Below are positions 8,197-61,592 of a stretch of 64,000 nucleotides of DNA, piece after piece (position 1 is the first letter of the stretch; each line of letters starts with the position of its first letter). Under the pieces are notes generated by a model. The model saw only the letters and a program-made list of their open reading frames with translations. It was not told the DNA's origin and did not search any database. Made by a program: the position numbers and the translations under genes. Location of the stretch: positions 5,634,501 to 5,698,500 of the forward strand of contig OX439043.1 in NCBI GenBank assembly GCA_949317995.1, in the 5' to 3' direction. The stretch comes from Acholoe squamosa (Eukaryota; Annelida; Polychaeta; Phyllodocida; Polynoidae).

Positions 8197-8204
8197 AATC
8201 CTAT

Positions 8205-20345: not shown

Positions 20346-20378
20346 CAGTACTTGGGGCCCTTAATCAATGTTCTGAAT

Positions 20379-31745: not shown

Positions 31746-32022
31746 GTCATTTGTATTCATGTAAAATAATAGCTCTCCCTCCTGGGCTCTCCATCTGTGA
31801 AACTAATAATCCTATAACTTCCATACTACAATCATTCAGACGTTTTACCTTCAACCACCTTTACATATTTTAAAGAGTGTTTATTTGCATAATTTCCTGA
31901 TGGTTATTAAGTTATTGAATAATATTCAATAACTTTTGTAATTCACACTGGTAAATGATTTCGACATAATTATGTTTACTCATATTACAACACAATGAAA
32001 TATAATTATAATAAGGTGATGA

Positions 32023-34222: not shown

Positions 34223-34228
34223 TTTATT
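34223..34228 (-). terminator. poly(A) signal of ferritin A
   Basis: AATAAA on the minus strand about 83 bases after the stop codon at 34311, a normal distance. It separates the first 3' cassette (exons 4-5) from the second (4'-5'). Confidence 0.55.
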
Positions 34229-34310
34229 TTATAATCACTAAAATAGCACCTGCAATATTTCTTTTCTAATGCTGTATTTTCTTTTTTCTCCCTAGTCATT
34301 TAGTAATTAA

Positions 34311-42795: not shown

Positions 42796-42799
42796 TCCT

Positions 42800-43240: not shown

Positions 43241-43347
43241 TTAATCCTCTTATGGCATTACATATAGCATAAAACCCTTCGTATAAGCCTCTTCTCCATA
43301 TTCATAAGCCCCCCCCCCTCTTTTGGAGAAAGTTGTAGGCCACACCA

Positions 43348-43438
43348 AGTGCAGGAGTGCATCATGCCCATTGGTCATCATGATGCACCAATGAAGTACT
43401 GGCAAGTCTGATCACCAGCACTTCATTGGCGCATCATG
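43348..43438. mobile_element. fragment of family P palindromic MITE
   Basis: CATCATGCCCATTGGTCATC, GATGCACCAATGAAGTACTG and CAGCACTTCATTGGCGCATC form the typical inner hairpin; the outer TTAA ends are missing. Confidence 0.5.
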
Positions 43439-43439
43439 T

Positions 43440-43995
43440 CTGAACGAATAAACAAACGATCAAATGAATGACAGAATAAATGAATTAATGAATGCACCGG
43501 GTGAATGAACATATGAACAATGGATGCACAAATGGATGAACGAATGAGTTAATAAACGAATGAGTCGAGGAATGATAAAAGCTCCTCCATAAATTTTGCG
43601 TTGAATATGTGAATGGATGGAATATGAGAATGGATGAATGACAGAATGAATGACAGAATAAATGACAGATTGAATGAAAGATAGAGAGGATGAATGAAGG
43701 AATGAATGAATGATGGAATTAATAAAAGATGGAATGGAAGAATTGGAGAGAAAAAGATTATAGAATAAGTGTCTGAGAGAATGAATGACTGACAAAATAA
43801 ATGAATGACAGAGTGATTGAAAGAATGAATGAATGGCTGAATGGATGACAGAATACATTAATGACTGAAGAAATGACAGAAAGAACGACTGACAGAATGT
43901 AATTAAGTGAATGAATGACAGAATGAATGAATAAATCGATGAATGAAATAATGAACAATATAGTGAATAGATGAATGTATAGGCATTTATCACAA
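43440..43995. repeat. GAATGAAT-derived tetranucleotide tract
   Basis: About 550 bases of diverged GAAT/GAATGACA repeats. The minus-strand reading gives Ser-Phe-Ile-His runs over more than 180 codons without coding features, so it is treated as a repeat and not a gene. Confidence 0.9.
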
Positions 43996-44224
43996 AGAGG
44001 GACCTGCCCAAGTCTACAGTGTCATGAGGTCAAAGACTGCCCTTACTGTACCACTCCCTGCCCACCCTGGAGCAGACACCACCATGCAGGGTAGCATGTC
44101 CTCCATGGGTGTAATCTATGGACAATATCCAGATGGACTTAGTCCTCCAGGCTCTACCTTATCCAGCCACTGTCCATTGTCTGATTATCTATCTACTCTA
44201 TTAGCCCTCTAAGTAAGGGACTCT

Positions 44225-44600
44225 GATTCATTAGCGCATTATGCCCATAGGTCTGCATGATGCACCAATGAAGTGCTGGTGAGTCTGGGGGCCCCCAAGG
44301 GGACCCCCCTGAGGTCACAATGTCGCCGAAATGCAAGGCCTCAGGTCACATGTCACTTTTTTAGGGAAAAAAACATGTCTAAAAATCTCAAAATTTAAGG
44401 CCCCAGATCAAATGTCACTTTTTTATGGATTGGACATGTCACATGTCACTTTTAAAAGGGTACAATGTCGAAATTTCACCTAAAATTACCAAATGTCGCC
44501 ATGTCGTTTTTTACCCCTTGGGGGCCACAGTCTGCTCGCCAGCACTTCATTGGTGCATCACACCGCCTCTCCGGGAGTGTTTCAACCCTGGATGTTCAGC
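44225..44600. mobile_element. family P palindromic MITE split by another insertion
   Basis: The left arm GATGCACCAATGAAGTGCTG ending GTGAGTCTG and the right arm GTCTGCTCGCCAGCACTTCA are the two halves of the usual hairpin, separated by 44288-44528. Confidence 0.7.
44288..44528. mobile_element. 241-bp nested MITE with AGTCTG target duplication
   Basis: Termini GGGCCCCCAAGGGG and CCCCTTGGGGGCC are inverted repeats. AGTCTG flanks both sides (44282-44287 and 44529-44534). The interior repeats ATGTCACTTTTTT and ATGTCG motifs. An uninterrupted GCGAGTCTGCTCGCC at about 55938 shows the empty site. Confidence 0.8.
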
Positions 44601-44832
44601 ATAGAGCCTAAGTGTAGCTCTGGTGAGTTACTCACAATTGCTGCTTAAATTAATGCATCATGGTGGGGAATGAGCATATCTACAAGCTAAAGGGGACCTC
44701 CAGAATGCCCCTCTCAGAGGTCCCTTTCACCTTGTTGATCCACATATGGTTTAGTGAATTAAAGCATTATGAGATGCTGAAATGGTTATAAACCTTGGTG
44801 CCATACCTCCCCCCTCCCCCCCCACAAAGACC

Positions 44833-44882
44833 ATGTGTGTATGTGTGTGTGTGTGTGTATGTGTGTGTGTGTGTGCGTGTGT
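44833..44882. repeat. TG microsatellite
   Basis: GTGTGTATGTGTGTGTG-type run just upstream of the candidate 5' UTR exon of ferritin B. Confidence 0.95.
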
Positions 44883-44885
44883 ATC

Positions 44886-44990
44886 AGCTGAATGCTCAGT
44901 GAGAGTGAGAGTAGGGGAGAGGAGTTACTTCAGGAGTAGAGGGGACAGGACCAGGAGGTGAACCCAGACCAGGACCTAACAGACAAACAG
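44886..44990 (+). other. candidate non-coding first exon of ferritin B
   Basis: A purine-rich segment ends AGACAAACAG|GTAAGGAG, a consensus donor, with no ATG. The ferritin B start codon at 52477 directly follows an acceptor (TTGTTATAACAG|CAGA), which implies an upstream 5' UTR exon; this is the best nearby candidate. The 5' limit is arbitrary. No TATA box or iron-responsive hairpin is evident. Confidence 0.35.
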
Positions 44991-44999
44991 GTAAGGAGT

Positions 45000-46380
45000 C
45001 CATCATTTTATACATCTAATTTACTGCTAACGTCATCAAACTATTGAAAAAACTATAATATCCTGCGAATGTCGATGGTCCACTTGGCATCTGTTGCGCA
45101 ATCTAGAAATATATACAAGAGATGTGAACTAGAAGGCAGTAAACTCACTTACGATTTAAGACCTAATGAGTCTTTGCTCTTCAAAGCTGAATATTGCAAT
45201 GTTACTAATTCATGCCCCACACAAAACTGATTATTAGTCCAAAAGAGATGAAGAGTGATCCAACAGTACCTTATACATTACCATTTAAAGTGAAACATGT
45301 GTTAACCTGTTCATTATCATCAAATGTAAATAATTTCATCCCTGTTCATGTTGTTTATAGAAATGTTCTTAAAGTAGCAGGCAGGTAGATTGAAATGACT
45401 ATATATGTGATTAGAATTATATTGTACTAGAGATTTCTTGAAATCATACACAAACACAAGCTTTGTAAACCCATAGAAACACCATTGGATATGCTATATA
45501 GTAATTTACTCGAATTACCGACATACCAACATGATGCCAATATGCTTTTTGTGAAACTGTTTTTATATCTATTCCAGGAAACAAATGTATCCAATCTTGT
45601 ATATCCTGTCTTCATATTGTAACAGAAAATCGCCATGTGCAGTTACAGTAAATGCCTATTTTATAGGACATAAAAAAAATGTAAAAGACTACGGGCGTTA
45701 CAAGGCACACCCATATAAGAAGCACCTTAACTTGATGGGGCTCAATTACGACTCATCTGATGTAAAATATTCTCAACTATAAGGTGCACCCCTAACTTTG
45801 GCTGCTTCTATGAGGTGCCTTTTATATGAAGTAATTACAGTACATGGTGGGGTAAAGGTGTAAAATGACATCTAAGAATTATCAAATTATCCGTTTACTT
45901 GAGGATGAATGGTTAGGAATTAGTCAGTGCAAGAGTGCGCAGGAGGCAGTGTCTTCAACGGGGGGGGGCACTCCCCTAGCTCTGCTTTATCTAATGTGAG
46001 CATTCTTTCAAGGGAAAGCAAAGCCCTTTTGGGTTTCTTGTTCAGGGATCTTCTCTAATCCATTAGGAAAATATGCTTGTGGGAAACTTGTGGGGGCTAA
46101 GAATCTTTTTGTTCCCGTGCAATTGGGAGTTGATGCACTATACTCCCTGGGATAGGTGGACTGTCCTAAAAGGTGGTTGGGGGGTAGGGGGTGGGGTAGG
46201 TGGACTATGGGCCATGGCCCCCATGCTAGAAAAGGCGCAGAATATGCCCCAACCCGGCCCACCCCCATCCCCTAGAAGAAAAAAAGAGACTAGTTTACAC
46301 TTATATATGATGAACTTGAACATTAACATTCAAATTGGCCTAAAATAGGGACAAGGAAATTTAAAAGAGAACCACCATAA
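45000..46380. other. AT-rich sequence, no gene seen; one decayed MITE
   Basis: At 45644-45842 an old family A-like element can be traced (GGCACACCCATATAAGAAGC to GAAGTAATTACAGTA). C/G-rich short frames at 46073-46348 have no splice support. Confidence 0.4.
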
Positions 46381-46470
46381 TTGTAATGCAGTGAGACCAG
46401 TGTAGTTTTTACAGTGAAAAGCCAGATGGCAGCACAATCATGCACAGTGTCTCGAGGACCCTCTGTAAAA
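46381..46470. repeat. repeat family I, left part, interrupted by the retrotransposon
   Basis: CAGTGTAGTTTTTACAGTG, CCAGATGGCAGC and ACCCTCTGTAAAA match family I up to the insertion point. The right half resumes at about 51723 (AATGATGATAGC to AAATTGCCAGAG). Confidence 0.6.
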
Positions 46471-46628
46471 AATGTTAAGCATCAATAGTTGATGCGAGTA
46501 TTGATCACTAGGGGGAAGCCTAGTCCCCACACCTGTACAGGTAGACTGGTGCAGGTATGCTGACCTAGTTAGTACTTCCCCCTGCCCGCTGCAGGCATGC
46601 TGCTAGCTCTATGTTGCTCACAAATTTT
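46471..46628 (+). repeat. split direct repeat A1 of Ngaro-like element
   Basis: 158 bases nearly identical to 51463-51620, starting AATGTTAAGCATCAATAG and ending TTGCTCACAAATTTT. Differences are isolated (CTGGTGCAGG versus CTGGTCCAGG; CCCGCTGC versus CACGCTGC). The internal AGGGGGAAG and CTTCCCCCT can pair. Confidence 0.95.
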
Positions 46629-46655
46629 GTCACCATAATTCTCATAATTGTCACC

Positions 46656-47987
46656 ATGGGAGTTATATGCGAGGCTTGTGAACACGAATATCATGGGAAC
46701 AAGCGTGCTTGTCCGGAATGCACATGCCCCAACCCGAGATGGAAATCGGGGGAATACATGGTGAGCCAGACGAAGCCGGCAGACCAGAAATCGGCCATGC
46801 AGAACGACCACGGGGAGGCCCACCAGGACGACGCGTCCGAGGGGATCGACAGTAGCTCCCGTCAGCAGACTGCAGGCCCCGGGGTGCAGACCACAACTTC
46901 GGCGGTAGACCCAAACGACCCAAATGCAGACCTACAGGCCAAAATTGAAGCTGAACGGGCCCACAAGACTTACATCGAAGCTATTTCTAAGAGACGTGAG
47001 TTAGAATTGGAGCTAGCGACACTTAGAGCAGAAAATAAATGTACCTTGAGAGATTTGGACGATGGGGTCCGTGCTTGGCAGGGAGTTATGTCAATTTATT
47101 CCAATGATGCCAATCGTCTGGCAGGTACACTTGGCCCCAATGGCAACAGTATGGGCATTGGTACACTCTGTCCAGCAGATGGTCCCAATGCCGTAGACTA
47201 TTCACTACAACAGGGCCAAAAGTCTACAGTAGGTCCAAATGTCTCCGGTCCATCGCTGGTACCTACAGTAGAAGCTCTGACTGGCCAGGCACAAGCACAC
47301 CTGAATATTCAGTGCGGAGACCAAGATGGCGGACAGGACCTTCCTGTTGGCAAGTTTCAGGCCAGTGAGACAGCTATTACAGGCCAAATAGGCCTGTCAC
47401 AGGCCTCAGCCAACGACAAACTGTACTACAGGGACTCAGTGGGTATGTTCCATGAACTTTCTAATGCAAACATCCCCAATAAGGCCCCAAAAAGCTCAGT
47501 AGGTCTATCGCTCAGCGGAGGACCGGTTGTCAACAAAGCCTCCGGCGGTTGCACGCTCACCGAAGGTGCAAGTTATCAAGAATATCTGTTGTGGAGGCAA
47601 GGTAAATTAGTTGGCAATGCTGAATCTGGTGTAAATAAAGGTGTTATTACTGCGCCTCAGGGTTATCGACCGCTAGGTGGGACCGAAGGACCCACACCCC
47701 TGGGGGAAGGTAGTACTCCTTTGCTTTTGGCTGAACCTACTAGTAAACCTCACCGTATTATTCACAACAGAGGTGTATATGAACTATCTAAACCAGCTGT
47801 GCCTGCAGCACCCAAGAGAGTTATTCACCAAGGCCAAGTTTATGAGTTAGTTCAATCATCTACAGCTAACCCCCCAGTGGCAGCTGCTCATCAGACGCTT
47901 CAGACAGGATTATCCAGCGCGGGATTATCCACATCTTCGCTAGCCCTACTAGATGGAGATACCAGCAATTTGTTTATGGCTAAATAA
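46656..47987 (+). CDS. Ngaro-like gag, N-terminal part
   Basis: The start is taken at 46656 because ACCATGG is a strong Kozak context; an in-frame ATG at 46611 lies inside repeat A1. The protein begins with a small zinc-ribbon-like CEAC...CPEC motif, followed by a charged, partly coiled segment (IEAERAHKTYIEAISKRREL). A low-complexity Pro/Gly/Ser region holds two copies of a motif: HRIIHNRGVYELSKP and KRVIHQGQVYELVQS. It ends at TAA, but the next frame (47997) is in the same register nine bases on, so the stop may be a mutation or be suppressed. The position as first ORF fits Gag; sequence homology is not recognisable by eye in this part. Confidence 0.65.
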   Translation: MGVICEACEHEYHGNKRACPECTCPNPRWKSGEYMVSQTKPADQKSAMQNDHGEAHQDDASEGIDSSSRQQTAGPGVQTTTSAVDPNDPNADLQAKIEAERAHKTYIEAISKRRELELELATLRAENKCTLRDLDDGVRAWQGVMSIYSNDANRLAGTLGPNGNSMGIGTLCPADGPNAVDYSLQQGQKSTVGPNVSGPSLVPTVEALTGQAQAHLNIQCGDQDGGQDLPVGKFQASETAITGQIGLSQASANDKLYYRDSVGMFHELSNANIPNKAPKSSVGLSLSGGPVVNKASGGCTLTEGASYQEYLLWRQGKLVGNAESGVNKGVITAPQGYRPLGGTEGPTPLGEGSTPLLLAEPTSKPHRIIHNRGVYELSKPAVPAAPKRVIHQGQVYELVQSSTANPPVAAAHQTLQTGLSSAGLSTSSLALLDGDTSNLFMAK

Positions 47988-47996
47988 GTTCAAGGT

Positions 47997-48272
47997 ATGC
48001 CTGACCTGGATTGGTTAAATAATTTCAAAATGCTGTCAGATACTACAAAACGCAAGCGTTCCACTAATAAGTTACGCCCTGACTTCTACATTGATGTTGA
48101 CAAGAAATTCGAAGAAATGAGTCTTCAAGAACTGGTCAATGGCATGAACTGTGTTGCGGACTACATAAGTAATTCCAACCTCCCTAGGGTTAGTCTAGAT
48201 GGCTACAGAGCACATATGCGATTTGTGTCATTAAAGGCTCAAGGAAATGCTTTCTCATCCAAAGCTCTCTAA
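47997..48272 (+). CDS. Ngaro-like gag, middle segment
   Basis: In the same frame as the preceding ORF, separated only by TAAGTTCAAGGT. It encodes 91 residues (MPDLDWLNNFKMLSDTTKRK, then FEEMSLQELVNGMNCVADYI) ending VSLKAQGNAFSSKAL. The protein appears to continue in the +1 frame from about 48235-48272 (SKYDHKVVTDVIEG), so one frame change separates it from the zinc-finger segment. Confidence 0.6.
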   Translation: MPDLDWLNNFKMLSDTTKRKRSTNKLRPDFYIDVDKKFEEMSLQELVNGMNCVADYISNSNLPRVSLDGYRAHMRFVSLKAQGNAFSSKAL

Positions 48273-48681
48273 ATATGATCATAAGGTAGTGACGGATGTG
48301 ATAGAAGGCAAATTGGTTGATTTTGAGGCAGGGTACAAACCAGCCATCGAAGCGCATTTGAGTGCTGAGCATATGTGGGTCGTAGAGAATTTATCGAATC
48401 CCAATTCTAATTCACAGGACAAAACCAGCACGAAGAAGAGACGCCGGCGTCAGCGGGAACAGCGTTCTGACAACTACCCCGCTGGTTGGCCTGCCGATGT
48501 GTGCTGGAAGTGGAATCTCGGGTCTTGCGACTATGACCCGTGTTATAAAAAACATGCCTGTGCTACATGTAGGGGGCAACACAAGAATAGATTCTGCAAG
48601 AATGATGATTCCAATGCTGCTAGCACTGCTCCGCAACAGTCTTCGGGCCCTCATGATAAGCAGGAAAAACACAAGCCATGA
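48247..48681 (+). CDS. Ngaro-like gag, C-terminal zinc-knuckle segment
   Basis: A helical segment (KVVTDVIEGKLVDFEAGY) is followed by a very basic KKRRRRQREQR and a Cys/His cluster, CWKWNLGSCDYDPCYKKHAC, then ATCRGQHKNRFC. Similar Cys/His clusters occur in Gag proteins of DIRS-order elements and probably bind nucleic acid. The frame ends at TGA (48679-48681), and the RT frame follows in the same register with no further stop. The initiating ATG is not required if this part is reached by frameshift. Confidence 0.65.
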   Translation: MLSHPKLSKYDHKVVTDVIEGKLVDFEAGYKPAIEAHLSAEHMWVVENLSNPNSNSQDKTSTKKRRRRQREQRSDNYPAGWPADVCWKWNLGSCDYDPCYKKHACATCRGQHKNRFCKNDDSNAASTAPQQSSGPHDKQEKHKP

Positions 48682-50415
48682 CTGGATGACTTATGTTGGC
48701 TGTGGCTGGGGAGTGATAATAGAATTACGTGTGCACCGTCATTATCAAATTTGTTGAGCACCTATGTTGACCTTGCTCCTCTGTGGGACTGTAATATTCC
48801 TTTGTTTGTCCAAGGAGTACGCGCTCAATTTAAACCGTGCGGCTGGCGCAAAATGTTATCAGGGGGTGATGACCAGGTTTTCGGTAAAGAGGCTTGGGAT
48901 ATTAATTCCCACTATTTACTAGATGGCGTCCTACACGACTTCAAGCTGGTGGACCCTGGTGCCCCCGTTGAAGGATATTTCTGTAAAAATTACTCTTCGG
49001 CCACTAATGACGCTTTCAGCGCTATTGACGCTATCGTATCAAATGAGTTAGAGAGTGGTAAATTGTCTGTTGTTGAGGAAAAACCAAAATGCATTCATGC
49101 ACTAGGTGCGGTCACCAAATCCGGTGGGGGCTATCGTCCAATTACTGATGCTAGTAGGCCTTTAGGAAAAAGCGTTAACAATTATATGGGTCAGACCTTC
49201 CATTCATTTAGCTATAAGTCAATTGACAATGTTTCGGCCCTGACGACACCCGGCTGTTTCATGGCGGTGACGGACATCAAAAGTGCGTATAGAATGGTTT
49301 TAATAAGGCCTGACGATAGAACCCATCAGGGTCTATTCTGGAATGGTGAATTTATCCAGGACAATTTCATGAGTTTTGGTACAAGAACAGCGCCGTACAT
49401 CTTTAATAGTATTTCTGATGCGGTCGCTCGTTATATGACTGCTAGTGGTTTCTCCTGTCTGAATTATCTAGATGACTTTATCGTTCTTGGAACCACTTAT
49501 GAGGAATGTAAAAATGCTCAGCTCTATTTACATGCTACCTTACGCTCTCTAGGTTTTTATATAGCCTATGATAAGGTTAGCTCACCATCCCAGGTCCAAC
49601 GCTACCTGGGTATCAAGCTAAACTCACGGCTGATGACACTAAGCCTCCCACAAGATAAAATAGAAAAGCTACACCAGGAACTGCGCTTTTTTACTGGTCG
49701 CCGCAGGGCGACAAAGCGGCAGCTGCAACACTTGTGTGGCATACTTAGCCATTGTTCAACCCTGGTGCGCGGTGGGAGGACCTTTTCGCATCGAGTCATC
49801 AACATGCTACGCGCCTTCACTGCTAGGAAGAGATATATAACTCTTTCTGAGTCTTTTCAAGAAGACCTAGGCTGGTGGAACCAGTTTGCTGCATGGTTCA
49901 ACGGTTCCGCCAAAATAATCCGTCCAGCCCCTTATGTATCGGCCATATACACTGACGCATCTGGCACGGGTTACGGTGCCATACATGGACTAGATTGGAT
50001 CTGCGGTCAATGGTTTGACAGTTTGATTATGGAGTCTGATCAACAGAGCCATTGTTTAGCACCTCCCAGTATGGAAATCCCTGTCAACATCAATGTCAGA
50101 GAATTATACCCGGTATATGAGGCATTGGAGCGCTGGGGCCCCTCATGGAGGGATTGTAAAATATTGTGTTTCACAGACAACACTCAAGTAGTGGGTGCCA
50201 TAAACAAGGGCAAGAGTGATAATTTTGTTTCTATGTGTTTATTGCGTAAAATGTTCTGGCTAACTGTTATATTTAATTGCCAGCTAATAGGGGTCCATAT
50301 ACCGGGCAAAGACAATATTGTTGCTGACGCGCTGTCCCGTGTTACGTCAACAAGTGATATACCACTATTTGTGTGTTGCAGGGGTGGAGGATCGAACCAG
50401 ACAACTGGACTTTGA
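48682..50415 (+). CDS. Ngaro-like reverse transcriptase / RNase H
   Basis: 578 codons, counting the stop, open from directly after the gag TGA. RT motifs in order: a GGGYRPITDASRPLGKSVNN substrate-binding region, AVTDIKSAYRMVLIRPDDR with the first catalytic Asp, FGTRTAPYIFNSISDAV, and the active site NYLDDFIVLG. A thumb follows with YLGIKLNS. The RNase H domain has YTDASGTGYGAI, INVRELYPVYEAL, CFTDNTQVVGAINKG and HIPGKDNIVADALSR, giving the D-E-D-D set. No ATG start is obvious before the domain (the first strong reading begins after TGA or from a TTG at 48751), so expression probably depends on gag. The last ~98 bases overlap the recombinase frame. Confidence 0.92.
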   Translation: MDDLCWLWLGSDNRITCAPSLSNLLSTYVDLAPLWDCNIPLFVQGVRAQFKPCGWRKMLSGGDDQVFGKEAWDINSHYLLDGVLHDFKLVDPGAPVEGYFCKNYSSATNDAFSAIDAIVSNELESGKLSVVEEKPKCIHALGAVTKSGGGYRPITDASRPLGKSVNNYMGQTFHSFSYKSIDNVSALTTPGCFMAVTDIKSAYRMVLIRPDDRTHQGLFWNGEFIQDNFMSFGTRTAPYIFNSISDAVARYMTASGFSCLNYLDDFIVLGTTYEECKNAQLYLHATLRSLGFYIAYDKVSSPSQVQRYLGIKLNSRLMTLSLPQDKIEKLHQELRFFTGRRRATKRQLQHLCGILSHCSTLVRGGRTFSHRVINMLRAFTARKRYITLSESFQEDLGWWNQFAAWFNGSAKIIRPAPYVSAIYTDASGTGYGAIHGLDWICGQWFDSLIMESDQQSHCLAPPSMEIPVNINVRELYPVYEALERWGPSWRDCKILCFTDNTQVVGAINKGKSDNFVSMCLLRKMFWLTVIFNCQLIGVHIPGKDNIVADALSRVTSTSDIPLFVCCRGGGSNQTTGL

Positions 50416-51376
50416 GGCTTCTGAATTGAGAGCTCGGACTTGGGCTCCTAGTACGTGGCGGACAGAAGCCTCACAGTGGAAACGCTATATAACTTTCAGC
50501 TTTTCAGTCCTTACCCCAGCTTTGCCTTCAACTCCCAAACACTTGTGTCGTTATATAGTGGACCTGTCCAAAAATTTGAAATATTCAACAATTCAGAACT
50601 ATGTTAGCGGAGTGATTTCTCTTAATGCTTATTTTGGTTATGATACCAAGTATATCCGCTCAGACTTCTCCTTTATCATGACTATGGCAGGGATCCGACG
50701 TGTATTAGGTGATCCCGAGCCAGTTCGCCCTTCTTTTACACTGAAGGATATTCTAAGTATGTTTTCCTTTGTAGACATGTCAAAACTAGAGGATAGAGTC
50801 TTGTGGACCTGTCTCGCCTTAAGTTTCCGAGGACTACTGCGCAAGTGTAATATCGTTCCTGATAGCACTGCGGCTACTGGTGTTCATTACCTCAAGAGGG
50901 GCGCTGTTTCTTTCACTGATTGGGGCCTGGAAATAGCGGTCTCAAGTTCAAAGACAATACAACATGGTCAACGGGTACATAAAGTACCTATTACATTGGC
51001 TCCAGGTTCCCCACTGTGTGCAGCCAGTTTGATAAAACGACATATGGCTGAATTCCCTAGCAAGGACCCGGAGGCCCCAGTGTTTGTATTACCAAGGAAC
51101 AATATCCTCACACCTGTGACATATCCAATTTTGTTGGGATTTCTAAAAAGGCTCTTGAAATCTGCTTTGTTACCTAGTGATCGAGCTGGCTTGCATTCAT
51201 TCTGCAGAGCTGAAGCTCTTTATATGTACAATCTTGGTCTGACAATCGAAGATATCAGACAAGCTGGAGATTGGGACAGTATGGCCGCTCTTCTATATCT
51301 AACCAAACCATACAGCTCCCGTATTGACACTGATTACGTTGTTTCCAATTGCTTGTCAAAAAACTTTACCATTTAA
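50318..51376 (+). CDS. Ngaro-like tyrosine recombinase
   Basis: Open for 352 codons in the +1 frame relative to RT, overlapping its end. The true start is uncertain, since the first codon of the frame is TTG. The N-terminal SAM-like core-binding part (STWRTEASQWKRYITF, TIQNYVSGVISLNAYFGYD) is followed by the catalytic domain. The first Arg is in ALSFRGLLRKCNI, the His-x-x-x-Arg box in GLHSFCRAEALYMYNLGL, and the nucleophilic Tyr probably in AALLYLTKPY after GDWDS. The R-H-R-Y set thus appears complete. Such enzymes insert the circular cDNA of DIRS-order elements without target duplication. Confidence 0.9.
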   Translation: MLLTRCPVLRQQVIYHYLCVAGVEDRTRQLDFEASELRARTWAPSTWRTEASQWKRYITFSFSVLTPALPSTPKHLCRYIVDLSKNLKYSTIQNYVSGVISLNAYFGYDTKYIRSDFSFIMTMAGIRRVLGDPEPVRPSFTLKDILSMFSFVDMSKLEDRVLWTCLALSFRGLLRKCNIVPDSTAATGVHYLKRGAVSFTDWGLEIAVSSSKTIQHGQRVHKVPITLAPGSPLCAASLIKRHMAEFPSKDPEAPVFVLPRNNILTPVTYPILLGFLKRLLKSALLPSDRAGLHSFCRAEALYMYNLGLTIEDIRQAGDWDSMAALLYLTKPYSSRIDTDYVVSNCLSKNFTI

Positions 51377-51392
51377 TTCTTACTTGGAGTTT

Positions 51393-51465
51393 GCCGGTGT
51401 TCAGTTTCACAGGACCAAGTCCAGATACTTAGTTACTTGTTCCTATTCTCCTCGTAAGGATTAAT
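51393..51465 (+). repeat. split direct repeat B1
   Basis: 73 bases (GCCGGTGTTCAGTTTCACAG to CTCGTAAGGATTAAT) matching B2 at 51650-51722 except for two substitutions. It adjoins A2 directly, forming the B1/A2 junction. Confidence 0.95.
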
Positions 51466-51620
51466 GTTAAGCATCAATAGTTGATGCGAGTATTGATCAC
51501 TAGGGGGAAGCCTAGTCCCCACACCTGTACAGGTAGACTGGTCCAGGTATGCTGACCTAGTTAGTACTTCCCCCTGCACGCTGCAGGCATGCTGCTAGCT
51601 CTATGTTGCTCACAAATTTT
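51463..51620 (+). repeat. split direct repeat A2
   Basis: Second copy of A1. It shares AAT with the end of B1, so the circle junction reads GGATTAATGTTAAGC. Confidence 0.95.
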
Positions 51621-51649
51621 TTCTTTCATTTGTTTTTGTTAATAAATAG

Positions 51650-51722
51650 GCCGGTGTTCAGTTTCACAGGTCCAAGTCCAGATACTTAGTTACTTGTTCC
51701 TATTCTCCTCGTAAAGATTAAT
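51650..51722 (+). repeat. split direct repeat B2 (right end of element)
   Basis: Second copy of B1, ending GTAAAGATTAAT. The next bases, AATGATGATAGC, belong to the interrupted host repeat. Confidence 0.95.
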
Positions 51723-51814
51723 AATGATGATAGCATTGTCTCAAAATTGCCAGAGAACCACTTTTAATTTGACAACTTTTTCCTTTTACAGTTTCTTTTT
51801 TTTTTTAAAGTTTT

Positions 51815-52465
51815 TGTTTTGTTTTGTTACAGCAGTATAAAGGTGTCATTGGATATTGCCCTGTTACTTTTTCAGTAAAAGAAAGTGTTAGTAAGTATTG
51901 TTCTGTTCTTTTTATTTTGTTACAGCGGAATTACCCTGTTTTTGTGATAGCAGAATAGGGAGGCAAAGTTATGCCCCATGACAACTGATTCTGGGCGTTG
52001 CATATTTAATTATCTCCCACAGGCTTGAAGGGACACTGTTTTATTTAATTACAGCAATATAAAGGTGTTACTGAGTATAACACTGTTTTTTACAGCAATA
52101 TAAAGGAGTTATTGAGAATAACACTTTTTTATATTTTAATTACAGCAATATAAAGGTGTTACTGAGTATAACACTGTTTTTTACAGCAATATAAAGGAGT
52201 TTTTGAGAATAACACTTTTTTTATATTTTAATTACAGCAATATAAAGGTGTTACTGAGTATAGCACTGTTTTATTTTATTACAGCAATATTAAGGTATGA
52301 CTAATTATAACACTGTTTTATTTTATTACAACAATATAAAGGTGTGACTGAGTATAACACTGTTTTATTTTATTACAGCAATATTAAGGTATGACTAATT
52401 ATAACACTGTTTTATTTTATTACAACAATATAAAGGTGTGACTGAGTATAACACTGTTTTTTGTT
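51815..52465 (+). repeat. ~47-bp minisatellite copying the ferritin B exon 1 acceptor and signal-peptide codons
   Basis: About ten units. Each has a T-rich tract, then TTACAGCAATATAAAGGTG and TTACTGAGTATAACACTG. Read in register with exon 1 (TAACAGCAGAATGAAGGTG, TTGTTGAGTATAACATTG), the best units encode IKVLLSITL against MKVLLSITL in the gene, with ATG changed to ATA. Every unit keeps an AG acceptor or a one-base variant (ACAACA). The array leads directly into the real exon. Older, more diverged units begin near 51815. Confidence 0.92.
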
Positions 52466-52476
52466 ATAACAGCAGA

Positions 52477-55400
52477 ATGAAGGTGTTGTTGAGTATAACA
52501 TTGGTGGTGCTGGTGTCGTGTAGCAGCGCCGAGCCGTGGTTTAACAGCGGGTCACAAAGTGACCAGGCAGCAGCCAGCAGCAGGGACACACGGAGCACCT
52601 CCAACAGTCGTATGTATCTATAGGCTAATAAAGTGTTAAAAACGTGTTTTTAACATGTGGAAACATTTGGAGGTGTAGGTAAAAAAAACACGTTTTTCTT
52701 ACATTTTTTGTAAAAAAAACAACAAAAAAACGGCTTGAAAGTTTTTTAAAACTTTTTTACATTAAGAATAACACTTTTAACCTAAAATAAAACGTATTTA
52801 CAGATCATTAAATAACGAGTTTTTTGAGCACATGTTCTAACGTTCCTTTTACGTTAACAAAACATTTGGTAAATATAGGAACATAAGAAAAACTTCCATC
52901 CTTTAAAAAACGGTAAGGGATATCTTGAAAAGATGTGGGTAAAAAAATGCTTAAAAAGTTTTTTTTTTTTTTTTTACATTAAAAAGTTTTCTTTCAACAT
53001 TTCAACCAAGCCTATAAAAACTTTTCTTAGTTGTATGTTTTAACATCGAAATTGTATTTCTTGTTTTAACCTAGAAATAATACATTTTAAAAGACTATCA
53101 AAATAATAAGGTTTTTTGAAGAACATGTGTTGACAGTTCCTTTACGTTCAGAACAAACGTTTGGAAAACTTAAAAGCATGAGGAGAACGTTTCTTACCTT
53201 TCAGAAAAACGTTTTCTCAAAAAAAGAAAAGTGGGAAATACACTCGCATGCAAATAAAATAGAGGAAAGAAGGGAGAGAATAGCATTTATGATTTAAAAA
53301 GAAAATGGTTGATTAACCAGATTTCATTTTTATGACCAATAGTAAGGTGTACATCTGGCTTGGGGTTGATCTACTGAAATGTACTGAAAATGATCTACAG
53401 TAGATGATGATGAGAATTCTGCCATGAGGAAACACGTGACAGACAGGTCTATAGGAGCAACATAGAAGGAGCGTCTAAAGTGTATAACAGCTTCCACCAA
53501 AAAAATTGCAAAACTTGCGATACTGAAAGAAAAATATACTTTTCGAACACAAAGATTTATCATACTTTCTTGCCAAAAGCTAGGTATAGGTATATCTTAT
53601 TCCATATGATAGTTTTAAACTTAATTCAATCAAAGTTTAATTCTTAACCATTATTCCATCTTCCTTCGTTGCAACTTCATCAGCGGATCGTCCTAACCCT
53701 ACCTGTGCTTCAACTAGGGGCGCATGCCAGAACCTCGACACCCGCATCCAGACCGGCATTAACAACCAAATACTGGAAGAATTCAAGGCCAGCTACACCT
53801 ATTTAGCTATGGTAAGTATACATTGTATATGTAGTTATATGTGTTTATGAATATATAATAACAACCAAATACCTAGCTATGCTATGCAGGCTACATGTTA
53901 CTCTTGGAAACGTTCAAAATCGATTTGAAATTAAAAGCATTAGTAAAAGACTCATTTCTTACACCAGGGAAAAAAAAAAACGTTTTTCAACGTTTTCGGG
54001 AAGATATAAAGTATCTAAGGAAAGAAATCTTCTAAGAAACACTGATTACATTTTTGAAATGTCAAAATTGTTTTTAAACCTACAAGTAAATTTTTAACTT
54101 CCGTAATGCGCAATTTCACGTGTAGAACAAACAACTGCAAAACTAATGAACCTATAAAAACTATTAAACTTTTATGTCAAAGATACGTTTTCTGCAGTTT
54201 AAACATACCAGAATATGTCTTACTTTTTGATGATTTTCGCTAGGACATAGACTCTTGCCATTTGCCGAAATACCCTGTCGTAATATCTATTCGAAATAAC
54301 AAAAAAAAAAGAATATGTGGACGTACCTTCTCTGTGATTTCCCATAATATTTGCTTGTTGTGTTATATAATTATATTTTTGGAAAAATCACGAAAAAACA
54401 CACTTCTCCCTCTTTTATCAACTAAACCAAGAGCACATGATTCTTAAAAGACTATTATAGAAAGCAATTTCCCTTTTAACATATCTTTCTTCTAACCGAA
54501 TCCAAGCATCTCCGTAGCAAAAATAAGTGAAAGGGGATGGGTCCATGATACGTTTTTTCAACGTTTGTAAAACATTTCTAAGTTATGTTATTAAAAATTA
54601 CATTTTTAACTCAAAATAAGAACGTTTCTATAGGATGATAACAAACCTTTGACGTTTTGATATCTAAAACAAACGTTTTGCAAATTCGGGAACCTAATAA
54701 AGCATTTTCTAACGTTAAAAAAAGACGTTTTATGCCAAGTGGGTTGAGGTAAGAATGGCTACATGTAGCTGTAGATGATAAGGTAAATCTGCTGTACAAG
54801 ACTGGGACAATGTCCATGGTGGATTAGTCGGGATTTGTTCGGTTGTTACAAAGGATGGACTTTGTCACTGGTCTGACATCAGAGAGTAATACCCGGTACA
54901 AACTTTAGCACTAGGTCCATCTATTGGCCACTAGCTGGTCTGGAGCTGGTTCTGATGACACTCACTGATAAGAACTGATAAGATGGGACCAGCATGTCCC
55001 TGGAAGTGGATGTTAACCAGGGACAAGGTACCCATCATGGTATGTTTTACCAGTTGGTTTTACCTCAACCAGCAAAATTCAAAATGGCGGCTCCACTAGG
55101 CCTCCATACTGAGTCCTATACAGTACGCCGGTACCGCGGGGTAACCCTATAACCCTTTAACGACTGCTAAATCATTAATCCATTAACCCAGCTAGCAACG
55201 TCTCTTTGTTACCTAGGTATGATGCACCAATGAAGTGGTGGTGAGCATACTCGTCATCACTTGACTCGTCTGTCATAATAGGCATAAAGCACTCGAGCAG
55301 CATTTCCACTTTGTGAACAAAAAACGTATTTCCAACAGTTGCAAAAAAAGGTTTGGATAAAAAAACGTTTTTCACAAACGTTTTTATCTTGTTTTAAATA

Positions 55401-58400
55401 AACGTTTTTCAAAGTTTTTCAACCAATTTTCAACCAAATGAAAACGTTTGATTTTTTCTAACTTTTTTTTTCAACCAGTTTTTAGTTATGTTTCTTTTAC
55501 GCTAAAAAAACGTAAACTTTTCTTAACCTAAAATAAAAACTTGATTATATGCCAAGTGGGTTGCAACTGTTGGGCTTGTTACAGGACATTTGGTGCGTAA
55601 AAGATGCACCATAGAGACCCGGCGGGTAACGTGACGACCTGGCATGATGCACTGTTGAAAGAGAGAACTGATGCAGGAGTGCATCATGCCTGTTGGTCCA
55701 GGTGATGCACCAATGAAGTGCTGGAATGCCTCATAATGCATTTGAGCCTCATGCCAACTCACCCATCGCATTGGCTCAGTAAGGTCGGCATGATGCATGA
55801 ATGCAGCCCTGGCGAGTTACTCACTAGGGCTGCATTCATGCATCATGCCGACTAATGGGGAAAGGGTTATCTCTTTAAAGGCCACTGATGCATTGATGCA
55901 TCATGCCCATCGTCATGATGCACCAATGAAGCACTGGCGAGTCTGCTCGCCAGTGCATCAGCGGCCTTTAAGGGGCTGTGTACAAATGACGTCATGCAGG
56001 AGGGGGGTTCCACTTGCCTTGACCAAGCATGACAAGGGGGGGAGGGGGGGTCATGGGCTGCATGACATCATGTCATCAAGAAATCACAATATGCTTTGGT
56101 TTTGGCAAGAACAAAAACTTTTGTAAAAAGATTTGTAAAGGTAGGGAAGTTTAATGCATTCATCTGACATAAAGTTATTACCTATAGGCCCTACATGCAT
56201 GCATTCCTCAGACATTTTACTCAATGAGTGTCACTGCCATCACTGCCATCAAAGTGTAAAATCAAGGTGATGTCCAGGCCACTATAAGGGGGCACTACTA
56301 CTCTATCAATATAATCTATACCAATTTAACCCTTTTTGAAAAGGGCCACTGCTGCGCTCAGGATCTAAAATGATGCATCTAAAATTCCCCTGAACTGCTG
56401 CTGTTGCCTCAGGGCAGCATCCATGGTAATCCACAGGCTTCTTTTTGAAAAGGTGTGATATTGCCCCCCCCCCCCTCCTTGAGGTGTCAAAATTATTTTG
56501 CTGCTCCCCCAATCCACCCCCTCCCGGAGTCCCACTGTTGATAAATATTGAACACTCCCCTGGAGCTCTCCACCACCCTGTTGCTATTTTCACTGAGGGG
56601 ATGCTTGGGGAGATGTAAAGGGGACCTCCCTCCAAACTTACTCTCCACATCTTTGTCTGAATGGAACTCTATCGGACTCACCTTATTTGCAGATTCTACA
56701 GTAAAATGCTGAGGTGACTCTATTGCTTTGTAAGATCACAAATTGGAACTATGATTGCAATCGATGGTCTCCTGAGAATTTGTGATGCTTTCTGAGTTTT
56801 TTCTATTAGGCCACTCACTAAATTCAGAGTGTTCTGCCTGAAACCTATTTCTAGTACACTTGTATATGGTTCAAGTTACAGATTAAATCAATACATTCAA
56901 TATATCAATACATTCAAGCTCTTGAACTATATGATCCTTAATAATAACTGTTCTCGATTTTCTCTTCGCTGACAAGTGTACAACTTTTACTGTAAAGGAG
57001 GCAGACTATTAACTGTATTGGACTACTGATCTAGACAGTTTTTAAGCCCTTTTGTGACAGGAAATACTTGTGTATGATCACAAACATAGTACTCCGTGTA
57101 TAACTCTAAGGCATGGACATGGTACATCCTGCATATAGGGACCCATACATTATATAAGCTGACAGTGTTTGGCATGTTTCTCTGTTCATTTGTTGATCAG
57201 TGCTAGTTCTTTTTTCACTTTGCATATATGTTATCCTTTATTGCCAATTCACACCCACTATATGTCCCTTTGAACCATTTTAATTTGTTTATAGCCTATA
57301 GACCTTCACTATTCATGCACTTTGGGGGGGGGTATCTCTCTGCATGACGTCATGCTAAGGGGGGGTCAAGTGTTGTATGACGAAACATGACAAGGGGGAG
57401 GAGGGGGTCAAAAATGGTCCAAAAATGCATGATGCCATTTGTACACAGCCTAAAGAGTTAAACCATGTTGTTGTATGTAATTACATCCAGGCACCTGAAT
57501 TAATATGTTGATATAAGATAAAAGGAAAAGAAAAAAAAACACACTAAGGTCATGTGGTTCTATAAAGCCCTTTGAAGTCTGCATGGTGTTTAAACCGTTG
57601 ACATTGTATCATAATGCCTTAACCCTATAGGGGCGGGTACTGCATGAGTGCATCATGTCAATTGATTGTCCTGATACAGTTATGATGAAGTGCCTGTGTG
57701 AGTCTGCTCACCAGCACCTCATTGGTTCATCAGACATGCCACTTGGTACATTGACTTGTTACTCTGACTATACTCTATCTATGGGTGTATCATTAGGTTG
57801 GAAATGATATTGGCACCATCCTAAAAGGGTAGTTTTCTAGAACAGGATGTAAGACCGCATACATGTACACAATGGCACCACCACAACATGTGACGTGTAC
57901 ACATGGACATCGTGGTTAATTCCACCCCTGGAACTCTGGTCCTGGATTTTTGATACATTATGTAGCGGACAGATCAGTCATTACGCCGTTACTGCTAACC
58001 GTATTGGAAACGATTAATGAAATTAACATACTTTCAATCAAAAAGAAAAAGGGTATTTAAGCAGAAAAACCTTTCCTCTTATTTGTGTATGCTTTATGCA
58101 TTCATTCTTTCTTTTATTAATTTATTCATTCATTCGCTTATTGCTCGTTCCTTCCTTCGTTCATTTATTTCTTCAATTATATATTCTTTAAAGATATTCA
58201 GAATCAACATGACTAAGATAGGAGTACGTTTACCAACCCTATGGATTCGGTATGATCTATGAATGCAGCCCCGGCGTGGAAACTCATTATACAGAGCTGC
58301 ATCTGTACACATCCCATTTGGAAAAAAATGACGTTTCTTAAATGCTAAAAACGTTACCAAAACTTAGTATTAAACATGGAAAAAAACCTATTCTAATGTT

Positions 58401-61400
58401 CTATAAGATAAGTTTTTATTTTAGGTTAAGTAAAAGTAATCTTAATGTAAAAGTATATAAAAAAAGGTTTTCCAAATGTTAAACACATGTAAAAACGAAC
58501 ATAAAAAGCTGTTTTCATTACATTAAATGTTTATGTAGAAACGTTTTTTAACGTAAATTACCGTTTTTTCTAAACGTTTTCAAATGTTAGAAGAACTTTT
58601 TGAAAACAATAGAAGAACTTTTTGCCAAGTGGGATGTACTATACAGACCACTGGGTGTGATGCAGTAATGGAATAGTGGTTCTGAAGAGGTGAACTCTAC
58701 TTAATTGCAGACTTGTTGTCTTCTCCCTGAAAAGCCTGTTTTGTGATAAACTTTAATTATTAATTCAAAGCTTGTCACTTTATGTATTTTCAGGCTAGTT
58801 TCTTTGACCAGGATAACCAGGCCCTACGTGGGTTCGCTAAGTTTTTCCGGGGAGCATCAGATGAGGAGCGCATGCACGGTACTAAACTCATGGACTACCT
58901 GAACAAGCGGGGCGGAAATGTGCAACTAAAGGCCATCCCAGTAGGTTATAGTTATTGTACAACAAGGGTTAAGTGCAACTAAAGGCCATCCCATTAAGTT
59001 ATATATTGCTACTGTAAGGTGTGGCTATAGCAAGCGAGGATGGACCCACTGGACCAGTACGCCTTATAGATGAGAGGCGTCTATTTTCTAAGATTTTCTG
59101 AAACCTACCCAATGTACTGAGGCCTCTTGAATAGGCTGTCTCAGGGATAAATTTAGAGTGGGTGAATTTGTGAAAATGCATGGGTATATGGAACTAAAAA
59201 AATCCTTAGAATCAGGGAAACCCTGAGAACTTTCATCACTGACATTATCAGGCATTTATATAAATTAACCTGACAGTTTATGGCCTGTCAGTCTTAGCTC
59301 TACCGTTATGACAGTGAGTAGCCACTCATGTAGTATTGTATTATAGAGGTATAAACATGAGGGCATGGGTACTTAGATATAAAGTAGTGCATTTAGCCTA
59401 CTTGTTCTCGATTTATGAAACAATCAATGTACTGAGTGCAGGTCATTAAAAAAAGGTTTGTTTTTTTTTATCTAATTTAATATACATATGCTTTTGTTAC
59501 TTCTTTTTTAACCCATACCTTTTACAAACTTAAAAAAAAAAAATAAAAACTAAAAACAGATGTTTTTTTTTGTCAATTGGTTATTAGGATGGTGTCACTG
59601 TTATTACATACAATACTGTGCAATACAATGTTTACAGGTACACATTATTCCTCCCTTATTGTGCAGGCACCTACCAAGATAACATGGGCCAATGCTAAAG
59701 AGGCTGTAGATGATGCGCTCGCCCTGGAGAAGGTCGTTAACGGTAAACTCCTGGACCTTCACTGGACGGCACAACAGGTCAACGACCCTGATGTAAGTAT
59801 AGCACTTTTTGAAATACATTTTTTTTGTGAGGATGACTTGATCTGACGTGAACGCCTCATAGACCAGTGGTTTATGTTCTATTACCCTGATTATTGTTAG
59901 AGAAGATCTGTAGAATGTAGATTCTGGTAGCTGAAAGAGACATCTATATAGTATTCTCAACTTTGGACCTTTGCACAAAGAAAGTTGGGAAAATAAAAAT
60001 CTTGAAATAGATAAACATTGCAGCGAAATATCTTTCAGCACATCTAGATTTTAAAAGAAAAGTTTGTTTTCTTATTCAACTTTCTGTTCAAAATAGCATT
60101 TGTAAAAGATGTAATCAATGTTTGTCCTGTTCGTGGTTGACATCTGTGGTGTCTCTGTATAAAGTTTCTCTGTGGTTTCTCTATGATTGACACTGACTGT
60201 TTATCTGTAGCTGACAGCAACTGTTTCTGTTTGGTTGACACTGACTGTTTCTCTGTAGTTTCTCTGTAGTTGACACCAAATGTTTCTCTATGATTGACAG
60301 TAACTGTTTCTTTGTAGTTTCTCTGTAGTTGACACCAAATGTTTATCTGTAATTGACAGTAACTGTTTCTCTGTAGATGACACTAAATGTTTCTCTGTAA
60401 TTGACAGTAACTGTTTCTCTATAGTTTCTCTGTAATTGACAGTAACTGTTTCTCTGTAGTTGACACTGACTGTTTCTCTGTAGCTGACAGCAACTGTTCC
60501 TGCGTAGTTGACACTGACTATTTCTCTGTAGTTTCTCTGTAGTTGACACCAAATGTTTCTCTATAATTGACAGTAACTGTTTCTCTGTAGTTTCTCTGTA
60601 GTTGACACTAAACGTTTCTCTGTAATTGACAGTAACTGTTTCTCTGTAGTTGACAGTTACTGTTTCTCTGTAGTTGACACCAAATGTTTCTCTGTAATTG
60701 ACACTAACTGTCTCCCACTTGGCATCAAAAAGTTTTTTAAAACTAAAAACGTTTGCCAAACGTTTATTTTAAATGTAAAAATGGCCAAAACATGTACTCA
60801 ATAAACTATTTTAACATTTTATTCAAACATTTTATTTAAGGCTAGAAAAGGTAATTTTAACATGAAAATAACTTAACTTAAAATCTTAAACTTTAAGAAA
60901 TGTTGAAGAAGTGAACAGTAAAACATTTTCTTTTTGCATTCAAAGGAGTTTTTGCAATATATCTTAAATGTTTATTAACATAAAAAAGGTTTTTCAAGAA
61001 CGTCTCTCAGTCAAACCTGATAAAAACGTTTGCAAACGTTAAAAATATGTTGTTGTTTTAATGCCACGTGGGTTGTTTGTGGTTTCTCTGTACAAAACAC
61101 TTACTGTTTCTCTGTGGTTTCTCCCTAGTTAACAATAACTGTTTCTTTGTGGTTTCTCCCTAGTTAACAATAACTGTTTCTCTGTGGTTTCTTCCTAGTT
61201 GACATTCACTGTTTCTCTGTGGTTTCTCCCTTGTTAACAATAACTGTTTCTCTTTGGTTTCTCCCTAGTTGACACTAACTGTTTCTCTGTGTTTTGTCCC
61301 TAGTTGACACTTACTGTTCCTCTGTGGTTTCTCCCTAGTTGACACTAACTGTTCCTCTGTGTTTTGTCCCTAGTTGACACTAACTGTTTCTCTGTGGTTT

Positions 61401-61592
61401 CTCCCTAGTTGACACTAACTGTTCCTCTGTGGTTTCTCCTAGTTGACCAACCTACTGGAGGGTGAGTATCTGGAGGAGCAGGTGACCGCTATTAAACAGC
61501 TATCTGACTGGTCTGCTATTCTGACGCGGTTCGGCACCAACAAGGTTGGAGAACACATCTTTGACCAGGAGCTCTTTGACGGAAAGCGCTGA
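52477..61592 (+). CDS. secreted ferritin B (five coding exons)
   Basis: Coding exons: 52477-52609, 53684-53811, 58794-58940, 59667-59792 and 61443-61592, all with GT/AG borders and matching phases (phase 1 after exon 1, then phase 0). About 227 residues. The signal peptide is [18 protein letters not shown], followed by a Ser/Asp/Gln-rich linker and a Cys pair ([11 protein letters not shown]). The ferritin fold starts at [13 protein letters not shown]. Ferroxidase ligands at human H-chain positions: E27 in [10 protein letters not shown]34 in ASYTY, E62 and H65 in [11 protein letters not shown]107 in ALEKVVNG, Q141 in LEEQVTAI. Exon 3 is 147 bases, as in ferritin A, and exons 4 and 5 differ by one codon each, so the two genes are paralogues lying head to head. 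The start follows an acceptor at 52472, so a 5' UTR intron is likely. AATAAA at 61598-61603 lies just after the stop codon, immediately before a MITE. Confidence 0.92.
52625..53235. repeat. AACGTTT-rich repeat block in ferritin B intron 1
   Basis: Repeated AAAACGTTTTT, TTTTAACATT and ACGTTC words in both orientations match blocks at 53960-54740, 55310-55560, 58314-58633, 60714-61072 and 62590-62800. Most belong to an inverted-repeat family ending CCCACTTGGCA; this block has lost clear ends. Confidence 0.6.
54535..54745. mobile_element. CCCACTTGGCA-type MITE, partial
   Basis: ACGTTTT-rich body ending TATGCCAAGTGGGTTG. Only the right terminus is clear. In ferritin B intron 2. Confidence 0.5.
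54940..55085 (+). repeat. dispersed repeat (family J), copy 1
   Basis: GAGCTGGTTCTGATGACA, CCCTGGAAGTGGATGTTAAC and CAGGGACAAGGTACCCATCA recur in inverted orientation at 63835-63975. A local palindrome is centred on GAAGTGGATGTTAACC. Identity unknown. Confidence 0.55.
55310..55562. mobile_element. CCCACTTGGCA-type MITE, partial
   Basis: Body of AAAACGTTTTTCAC and ACGTTTTTATCTTG words, ending ATATGCCAAGTGGGTTG at 55562. The left end is merged with a family P fragment (55190-55300). Confidence 0.5.
55620..55975. mobile_element. family P palindromic MITE copies
   Basis: Two adjacent hairpins: GGCATGATGCATGAATGCAG with CTGCATTCATGCATCATGCC (about 55787-55850), and GCACTGGCGAGTCTGCTCGC with GCCAGTGC (about 55932-55957). 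GGCCTTTAAGGGGC marks an end near 55974. The second hairpin is the uninterrupted form of the site split at 44288. Confidence 0.6.
56130..58310. other. ferritin B intron 2, mostly unassigned
   Basis: Contains a G-tract repeat with CATGACGTCATG (57325-57450, related to 55984-56085), a family P fragment at 57619-57735 (TTAACCCTATAGGGGC) and a TTCATTCATTC tract near 58100-58180. No exon is seen. Confidence 0.4.
58314..58633. mobile_element. CCCACTTGGCA-type MITE in ferritin B intron 2
   Basis: Begins CCCATTTGGAAAAAAATG and ends TTTTTGCCAAGTGGG, about 320 bp, with ACGTTTTTTAACG and ACGTTTTCAAATG words inside. Non-coding. Confidence 0.65.
60130..61442 (+). repeat. minisatellite of exon 5 acceptor-like units in ferritin B intron 4
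   Basis: Units of about 29-40 bases at 60130-60713 (GTTTCTCTGTAGTTGACAC) and 35 bases at 61075-61440 (GTGGTTTCTCCCTAGTTGAC). The authentic exon 5 junction is GTGGTTTCTCCTAG|TTGACC, so most units contain a pyrimidine tract, an AG and the first five exon bases. A MITE at 60714-61072 splits the array into an older and a younger part. The last unit is the real exon border. Confidence 0.93.
60714..61072. mobile_element. CCCACTTGGCA-type MITE inserted in the minisatellite
   Basis: Begins CCCACTTGGCATC and ends ATGCCACGTGGG, with ACGTTTGCCAAACGTTTA and AAAACGTTTGCAAACGTT inside. About 359 bp and non-coding, the clearest full-length member of this family. Confidence 0.75.

What the first reader, a model, noticed from the sequence alone, without database searches (positions are those of the whole stretch)
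51815..52510. Minisatellite made of a splice acceptor plus signal-peptide codons, start codon lost in the repeats
The array immediately upstream of ferritin B exon 1 repeats the exon's own acceptor and its first nine codons. The best units translate IKVLLSITL where the gene has [12 protein letters not shown] is ATA in the units, while the acceptor AG is mostly kept. Intact acceptors without start codons could act as decoy or alternative 5' UTR splice sites, letting transcripts vary their leader without adding upstream AUGs. Tandem amplification of a 3' splice site with coding sequence is not a pattern I know to be described for ferritin genes.
Basis: partly seen in the sequence, partly recalled or inferred. 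Interest (0 to 1): 0.85.

Follow-up and report, generated by a model that had tools for sequence, protein, structure and literature searches.

The report
Duplicated splice acceptor beside ferritin exon
Upstream of a secreted-ferritin gene lies a row of about ten degenerate copies of that gene's own intron end and first coding bases, a kind of repeat already described in lancelet genes and most likely a by-product of DNA duplication rather than a switch.

Summary
Between 51829 and 52472, 10 units match the first 31 bases of ferritin B exon 1 at 21-25 positions; the best of 126,456 background positions is 20. The ATG reads ATA in 8 units and ATT in 2; AG is intact in 8 of 10. The interpretation mostly fails. 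Every intact unit acceptor lies upstream of an ATG at 52391, so its use adds an upstream AUG unless a further splice removes it; ATG and AG changes look like single events spread by copying. Nor is exon 1 unique: the exon 5 acceptor of the same gene is repeated in a 35-bp array (8 TAG copies before the real one), and the exon 3 donor boundary has a second, GT-less copy. Such boundary duplications are published in amphioxus genes as "mirages", reported not to disturb splicing. About 11.7% of the window is tandem repeat, and the 19 ferritin splice sites surveyed are not hit more often than random positions. Verdict: new member of a known kind, probably neutral. RNA and species could not be tested; a promoter-array rival (TATAAAGG in 8 units) stays open.

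The parts
51829..52472 (+). Array of 10 alignable units (41-51 bp from 52051 on; a degenerate 5' part, 51829-52050, holds one alignable and two poor units), each alignable unit with T-rich tract, ACAG or ACAA, and a copy of the first 31 exon bases
52281..52468 (+). Two tandem 94-bp dimers, 91 of 94 identical (counted from the printed alignment), i.e. a recent duplication inside the array; 52051-52233 holds a second pair of 91 and 92 bp
52469..52472 (+). Inferred true acceptor (ACAG) of ferritin B exon 1, followed by CAGA and the ATG
   Evidence: homology to units; not confirmed by RNA
52473..52609 (+). Ferritin B exon 1 (ATG at 52477, signal peptide [18 protein letters not shown] by eye), donor GTATGT at 52610
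53684..53811 (+). Ferritin B exon 2
   Evidence: joined protein aligns to ferritin
58794..58940 (+). Ferritin B exon 3
58973..58993 (+). Second copy of the last 21 bases of exon 3 (21 of 21 identical) with the donor GT changed to TT: duplicated 5' splice boundary, offset 53 bp
59667..59792 (+). Ferritin B exon 4
60164..60711 (+). Diverged array in intron 4, units related to the exon 5 acceptor
61097..61447 (+). 35-bp array running through the exon 5 acceptor; 8 TAG copies followed by TTGAC (6) or TTAAC (2) before the true TAG at 61440-61442
61443..61592 (+). Ferritin B exon 5 with stop codon; the acceptor is fixed by a gapless match to a solved ferritin
46471..51722 (+). Ngaro-like tyrosine-recombinase retroelement with split direct repeats (46471-46631/51463-51623, 98%; 51393-51465/51650-51722, 97%), ending 107 bp before the first unit
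   Evidence: the family name rests on layout and recalled features, see report

Best explanation
The array is a 'mirage': a tandemly duplicated intron/exon boundary. A segment spanning the 3' end of a 5'-UTR intron and the first about 31 bases of exon 1 was duplicated head to tail and then expanded and homogenised as monomers and dimers by unequal exchange or slippage. The exon-side copy is held in place by selection on the coding sequence; the upstream copies are intronic and free to drift, and their common ancestor already differed from the gene at the ATG. The real acceptor is most likely the last AG, next to the ATG, and the array is mostly neutral. The sequence homology, the dimer structure and the recurrence at other boundaries of the gene are shown here; the 5'-UTR intron, the duplication mechanism and neutrality are inferred.
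For: Units match exon 1 better than any of 126,456 background positions. The same gene has an array through the exon 5 acceptor that matches it (score 55; maximum 22 among 400 pyrimidine-rich AG sites) and not other acceptors (next best of 11 scores 20), and a second copy of the exon 3 donor boundary. Four control arrays show no comparable match to any of the 11 acceptors (best scores 13-18). The 94-bp dimers are nearly identical, as expected of unequal exchange. Published amphioxus cases have acceptor- or donor-spanning units of 10-160 bp, cryptic AG/GT signals and normal splicing (PMC3087553, passages; PMC3902484, passages).
Against: No RNA evidence that an intron ends at 52472. The units also contain TATAAAGG, so a promoter array is possible. 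The organism is not identified. The exon part shared by the exon 5 array is only TTGAC and is not significant alone (15% of background 20-mers score as well; 88% for the 60164-60711 array). Arrays over splice sites are not in excess: against 2000 random window positions the exon 1 and exon 5 acceptors each rank at P = 0.10 and the exon 3 donor at 0.145, with P(>=2 of 19) = 0.58 and P(>=3 of 19) = 0.53. So there is no sign of a process aimed at splice sites.
Confidence: 0.7

Rival explanations
1. Promoter array. Transcription starts downstream of a TATA box carried by the units (TATAAAGG), the last beginning 48 bases before the ATG, and there is no 5'-UTR intron; the ACAG is a coincidence of T-rich promoter sequence.
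For: TATAAAGG occurs 12 times on the + strand of the window, 8 of them in the array. The last one, in the unit at 52422, lies at a distance that would give a very short leader.
Against: TATAAAGG is what the exon's ATGAAGG context becomes with ATG to ATA, and the 8 copies are one founder. The other ferritin B array sits on an internal acceptor fixed by protein homology, so boundary arrays form in this gene without any promoter.
Confidence: 0.15
2. Working decoy or alternative acceptors: the array AGs are used and vary the 5' leader of the ferritin mRNA.
For: On a rough, recalled matrix the 10 intact unit acceptors score 5.1-8.4 and 6 of the 10 beat the gene's own 5.8.
Against: Each intact unit acceptor leads to at least one uAUG. 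The two AG columns are not clearly better kept than the rest (one of the two varies, against 17 of the other 33, over 10 units plus the gene). Published mirages are reported not to disturb splicing.
Confidence: 0.1
3. The array came first and exon 1 was born from its last unit: a minisatellite unit gained an ATG and became the signal-peptide exon.
For: The gene copy sits at the 3' end of the array, and the direction ATG to ATA or ATA to ATG cannot be told from the units.
Against: At exon 5 the exon bases are ferritin coding sequence alignable to other ferritins, so there the copying most likely went from exon to array. 4 of 10 exon 1 units carry an in-frame stop.
Confidence: 0.05

Closest known systems
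'Mirages' of amphioxus genes (Adh3, troponin C, globins BflGb6/BflGb9, PGBD5)
   Same: Tandem, minisatellite-like duplications spanning an intron/exon boundary, on acceptor or donor side, with copies of splice signals (PMC3087553 and PMC3902484, passages).
   Different: Here one array sits at the initiation exon, so its units are copies of the start-codon region; two arrays and one simple duplication affect three boundaries of a single gene, one of the boundaries (exon 1) being inferred. Species not established; no RNA.
Human IFI6 (6-16) minisatellite with multiple splice donor sites
   Same: A minisatellite that repeats a splice site (only the title of the 1995 report was seen, in the reference list of PMC2572611; details recalled).
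   Different: It provides donor sites in a transcript; here acceptors are repeated and use is unknown.
Minisatellite expansions in human genes hosted in segmental duplications
   Same: Tandem repeats with on average 30-bp units that change exon/intron structure (PMC2812944, passages).
   Different: Repeats contained in exons of recent human paralogs and judged by transcripts.

Membership tests
amphioxus 'mirage' | Tandem units span an intron/exon boundary | tested here: met
   Exon 5 array at an acceptor fixed by protein homology; exon 3 donor copy; exon 1 array by sequence, its boundary inferred
amphioxus 'mirage' | Unit length within the published 10-160 bp | tested here: met
   41-51 bp, 35 bp, 53 bp; range
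amphioxus 'mirage' | Copies carry AG/GT signals in many but not all units | tested here: met
   AG in 8 of 10 exon 1 units; 8 TAG-bearing exon 5 units plus one near 61231 that reads TTG; GT lost in the exon 3 copy
amphioxus 'mirage' | Homogenised core with diverged edges | tested here: inconclusive
   Edge distances 6-11 overlap core distances 0-10
amphioxus 'mirage' | Normal splicing is kept | not testable with these tools
   No RNA data
amphioxus 'mirage' | Copy number varies between haplotypes or somatically | not testable with these tools
   One haplotype only; near-identical dimers make it likely
amphioxus 'mirage' | Found in a cephalochordate | tested here: inconclusive
   No genome held. 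A Ngaro-like element is compatible: such elements with three ORFs are reported in amphioxus (PMC2632668, passage), but that passage mentions other invertebrates too
IFI6-type splice-donor minisatellite | The repeated site is a donor | tested here: not met
   The exon 1 and exon 5 arrays repeat acceptors

The most novel reading that the evidence does not exclude
The array is a length-variable bank of alternative acceptors for the 5' leader of an iron-storage gene: different array alleles give mRNAs with different numbers of short upstream reading frames (two of the four array ATGs open the same 16-codon frame, at 52297 and 52391), and so different ferritin output.
Probability: 0.06. Interest if true: 0.6.

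Novelty: new member of a known kind. Interest (0 to 1): 0.3.

Why it matters
It adds a ferritin gene, with two arrays and one simple duplication at different boundaries, to the genes in which intron ends were caught in the act of multiplying. Such structures have been proposed as raw material for new introns (PMC3087553, passage), and a copy at an initiation exon is a case where extra acceptors would alter only the leader, not the protein. The null result, that 19 splice sites are not hit more often than other positions in a repeat-rich window, bears on whether mirages need any special mechanism.

Tried and rejected
Selection against upstream ATGs: the shuffle test is formally extreme (4 against 10.8, 0 of 500) but rejected because units are not independent. 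Selection to keep AG: no clear sign. Special targeting of splice sites: not supported by the survey of 19 boundaries. A separate placement test, with both ferritin B array ends falling at an acceptor in 0.00041 of 200,000 random placements, was chosen after seeing the arrays and carries little weight. Ferritin A arrays: the array at 33402-33621 resembles the ACTTTGCAG acceptor of exon 4' (2 of 400 AG sites as good; intron part P = 0.0032; but P = 0.22 and 0.11, and no match on the exon side, 0.99), and the 28-bp array at 36073-38114 shows no significant match to its own exon 4 (P = 0.275; 0.23); neither is claimed. An iron-responsive element: 0 Rfam matches at gathering over the window; at E up to 5 over 39500-53000 no IRE among 16 matches, all 16 below their gathering scores. 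A donor match of the exon 1 array to exon 4 (P = 0.007) was put down to the 72 donor tests made. The first exon 1 test included the gene's own 25 intron bases inside the array and is void; it was redone with the array cut at 52440. The exon 5 test used an array cut at 61420, which overlaps the tested stretch by three bases; the best alignment lies elsewhere. In one search the 'intronic 25' backgrounds did not exclude the arrays themselves (so 0.0042 for exon 1 and 0.0028 for exon 5 are conservative). The acceptor matrix is rough and recalled. The 11.7% repeat coverage uses my own merged list of TRF intervals. Taxon: no eukaryote collection is on hand; a paper on amphioxus MITEs was not held; a survey lists DIRS1-like elements in Branchiostoma and many other taxa, so the element does not settle it (PMC3266345, passages). 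A copy of part of exon 2 in intron 2 shows only a 14-base match and is not claimed. One search printed only the first 150 rows of the self-comparison; one search dropped 43 of 302 reading frames lying in arrays or the retroelement and one search showed 98 of the remaining 259; one search scanned 5 sequences against Pfam, so other genes in the window were not annotated.

Full report
What is there. Ferritin B lies on the + strand from 52473 to 61592. Its five coding exons were placed by tblastn (exons 1-4), by reading the sequence (exon 5) and by splice motifs. Joined, they give a 227-residue protein whose residues 60 to 222 align with a solved ferritin (best E 5.7e-45); the one alignment printed runs without a gap through the exon 4/exon 5 junction. 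That fixes the acceptor at 61442/61443. Exon 1 carries a start codon at 52477 and a signal peptide (judged by eye); the AG that ends five bases before the A of the ATG is acceptor-like (ACAG), but nothing here proves an intron ends there.

The array. TRF reports 10.1 copies of a 47-bp unit at 52033-52500. Cut at the acceptor, 12 candidate units lie upstream of the gene. Against the 31 exon bases after the acceptor, 10 of the 12 reach 21-25 identities and two reach 14 and 12; of 126,456 positions elsewhere in the window the best reaches 20, once. The position of the ATG is ATA in 8 and ATT in 2 of the 10. AG is present in 8 of 10; the two AA units lie in two copies of the same 94-bp dimer. In a 35-base comparison the matching units of the two dimers are identical, and the full dimers differ at 3 of 94 positions, all at the gene-side end; the 91/92-bp pair differs by one substitution and one inserted T. 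So the array has grown recently by whole dimers. The outermost unit at 51829 shares one base with the gene that the other nine have changed (CAG against CAA), which fits older copies surviving at the edges, but the distances of edge units (6-11) overlap those within the core (0-10), so this is weak.

The start codon. Four ATGs lie in the array, at 51971, 51978, 52297 and 52391. All ten intact unit acceptors (8 alignable units plus 51922 and 51947) lie upstream of the one at 52391. Any leader spliced at them would hold at least one upstream AUG unless a further splice removed it. The low total of ATGs against shuffles is explained by copying of one ATG-free founder.

Not only exon 1. In intron 4, an array of 35-bp units (61097-61447) runs through the exon 5 acceptor. 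One search lists 8 TAG copies before the true one; 6 of the 8 are followed by TTGAC, as in the exon, and the two farthest by TTAAC. One further repeat, near 61231, has lost the TAG. The array matches the exon 5 acceptor with score 55; the maximum for 400 pyrimidine-rich AG sites is 22 and the next best real acceptor scores 20. The exon contribution is only five bases and is not significant alone. A more diverged array of related units lies at 60164-60711 (score 40 against background maximum 24). At exon 3, the last 21 coding bases are repeated exactly 53 bp downstream, and in that copy the donor GT reads TT. So three boundaries of this gene have been duplicated, that of exon 1 being an inferred boundary.

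Is it special? By my merged list of TRF intervals, 11.7% of the window is tandem array. In a survey of 11 acceptors and 8 donors of the ferritin genes, the exon 1 and exon 5 acceptors reach a duplication score that 10% of 2000 random positions also reach, and the exon 3 donor one that 14.5% reach. Three of 19 is what such rates give (P about 0.53). Among 2000 positions outside arrays the same scores are rare (0.004, 0.004, 0.035), so the duplications are real, but there is no excess at splice sites. The simplest account is that tandem duplication is frequent here, that some events straddle exon edges, and that selection on the exon then fixes one end.

Comparison with what is known. The globin paper (PMC3087553; [quoted passage not shown] The PGBD5 paper (PMC3902484; passages) adds that gene and cites Adh and troponin C. 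The original Adh report was not held and is known to me through these citations. The structure here fits the published features that I could test clearly (boundary span, unit length, partial keeping of AG/GT); homogenisation of the core was inconclusive. The species cannot be named from the tools; amphioxus is my inference from the resemblance. The Ngaro-like element next to the array is compatible: it has split direct repeats and a reverse transcriptase domain by Pfam, while its two other frames gave no Pfam match and the tyrosine recombinase is recognised by eye. Ngaro-like elements with gag, reverse transcriptase and recombinase frames are reported in amphioxus (PMC2632668, passage).

Mechanism. 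Shown: homology of units to the boundary, recent dimer duplication, recurrence at other boundaries. Inferred: the 5'-UTR intron, unequal exchange or slippage, and neutrality. The main rival is a promoter array, since the ATA form of the unit creates TATAAAGG in 8 units. A search of the held library for ferritin gene, minisatellite and intron found no paper; another on intronic minisatellites, alternative acceptors and start codons listed one paper, a beetle genome, not opened.

Noticed in passing
32020-39704, minus strand: Ferritin A: exons 2-5 from 39704 to about 34311, followed by a second exon 4/exon 5 pair (32730-32608 and 32175 onward), either a partial tandem duplicate or alternative last exons; the 73-copy 28-bp array lies in intron 3 and a 34-bp array lies before exon 4'.
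   Followed up: partly
41529, minus strand: Candidate ferritin A exon 1 ([23 protein letters not shown]) with a C-rich pyrimidine tract and TAG about 47 bases upstream; the tract is itself a small tandem repeat (TRF 41602-41645). Hints that both genes have a 5'-UTR intron.
   Followed up: partly
46471-51722: Ngaro-like retroelement with long open frames and split direct repeats 97-98% identical, so probably a young insertion, 107 bp upstream of the first unit.
   Followed up: partly
53859-53881: Intron 2, 47 bp past the donor, holds a 14-base exact copy of exon 2 sequence (TAACAACCAAATAC) followed by TAGCTATG as at the exon end; possibly a further boundary duplication with a deletion.
   Followed up: partly
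11741-12196, minus strand: Open frame with Gly-X-Y repeats, collagen-like by eye.
   Followed up: no
233-471, 5960-6207, 7956-8197, 10075-10315, 12387-12622, 18487-18724, 20376-20615: Seven copies of a ~240-bp dispersed repeat, 78-91% alike in the full-length pairs printed, plus partial copies; probably a short mobile element (capped listing).
   Followed up: no
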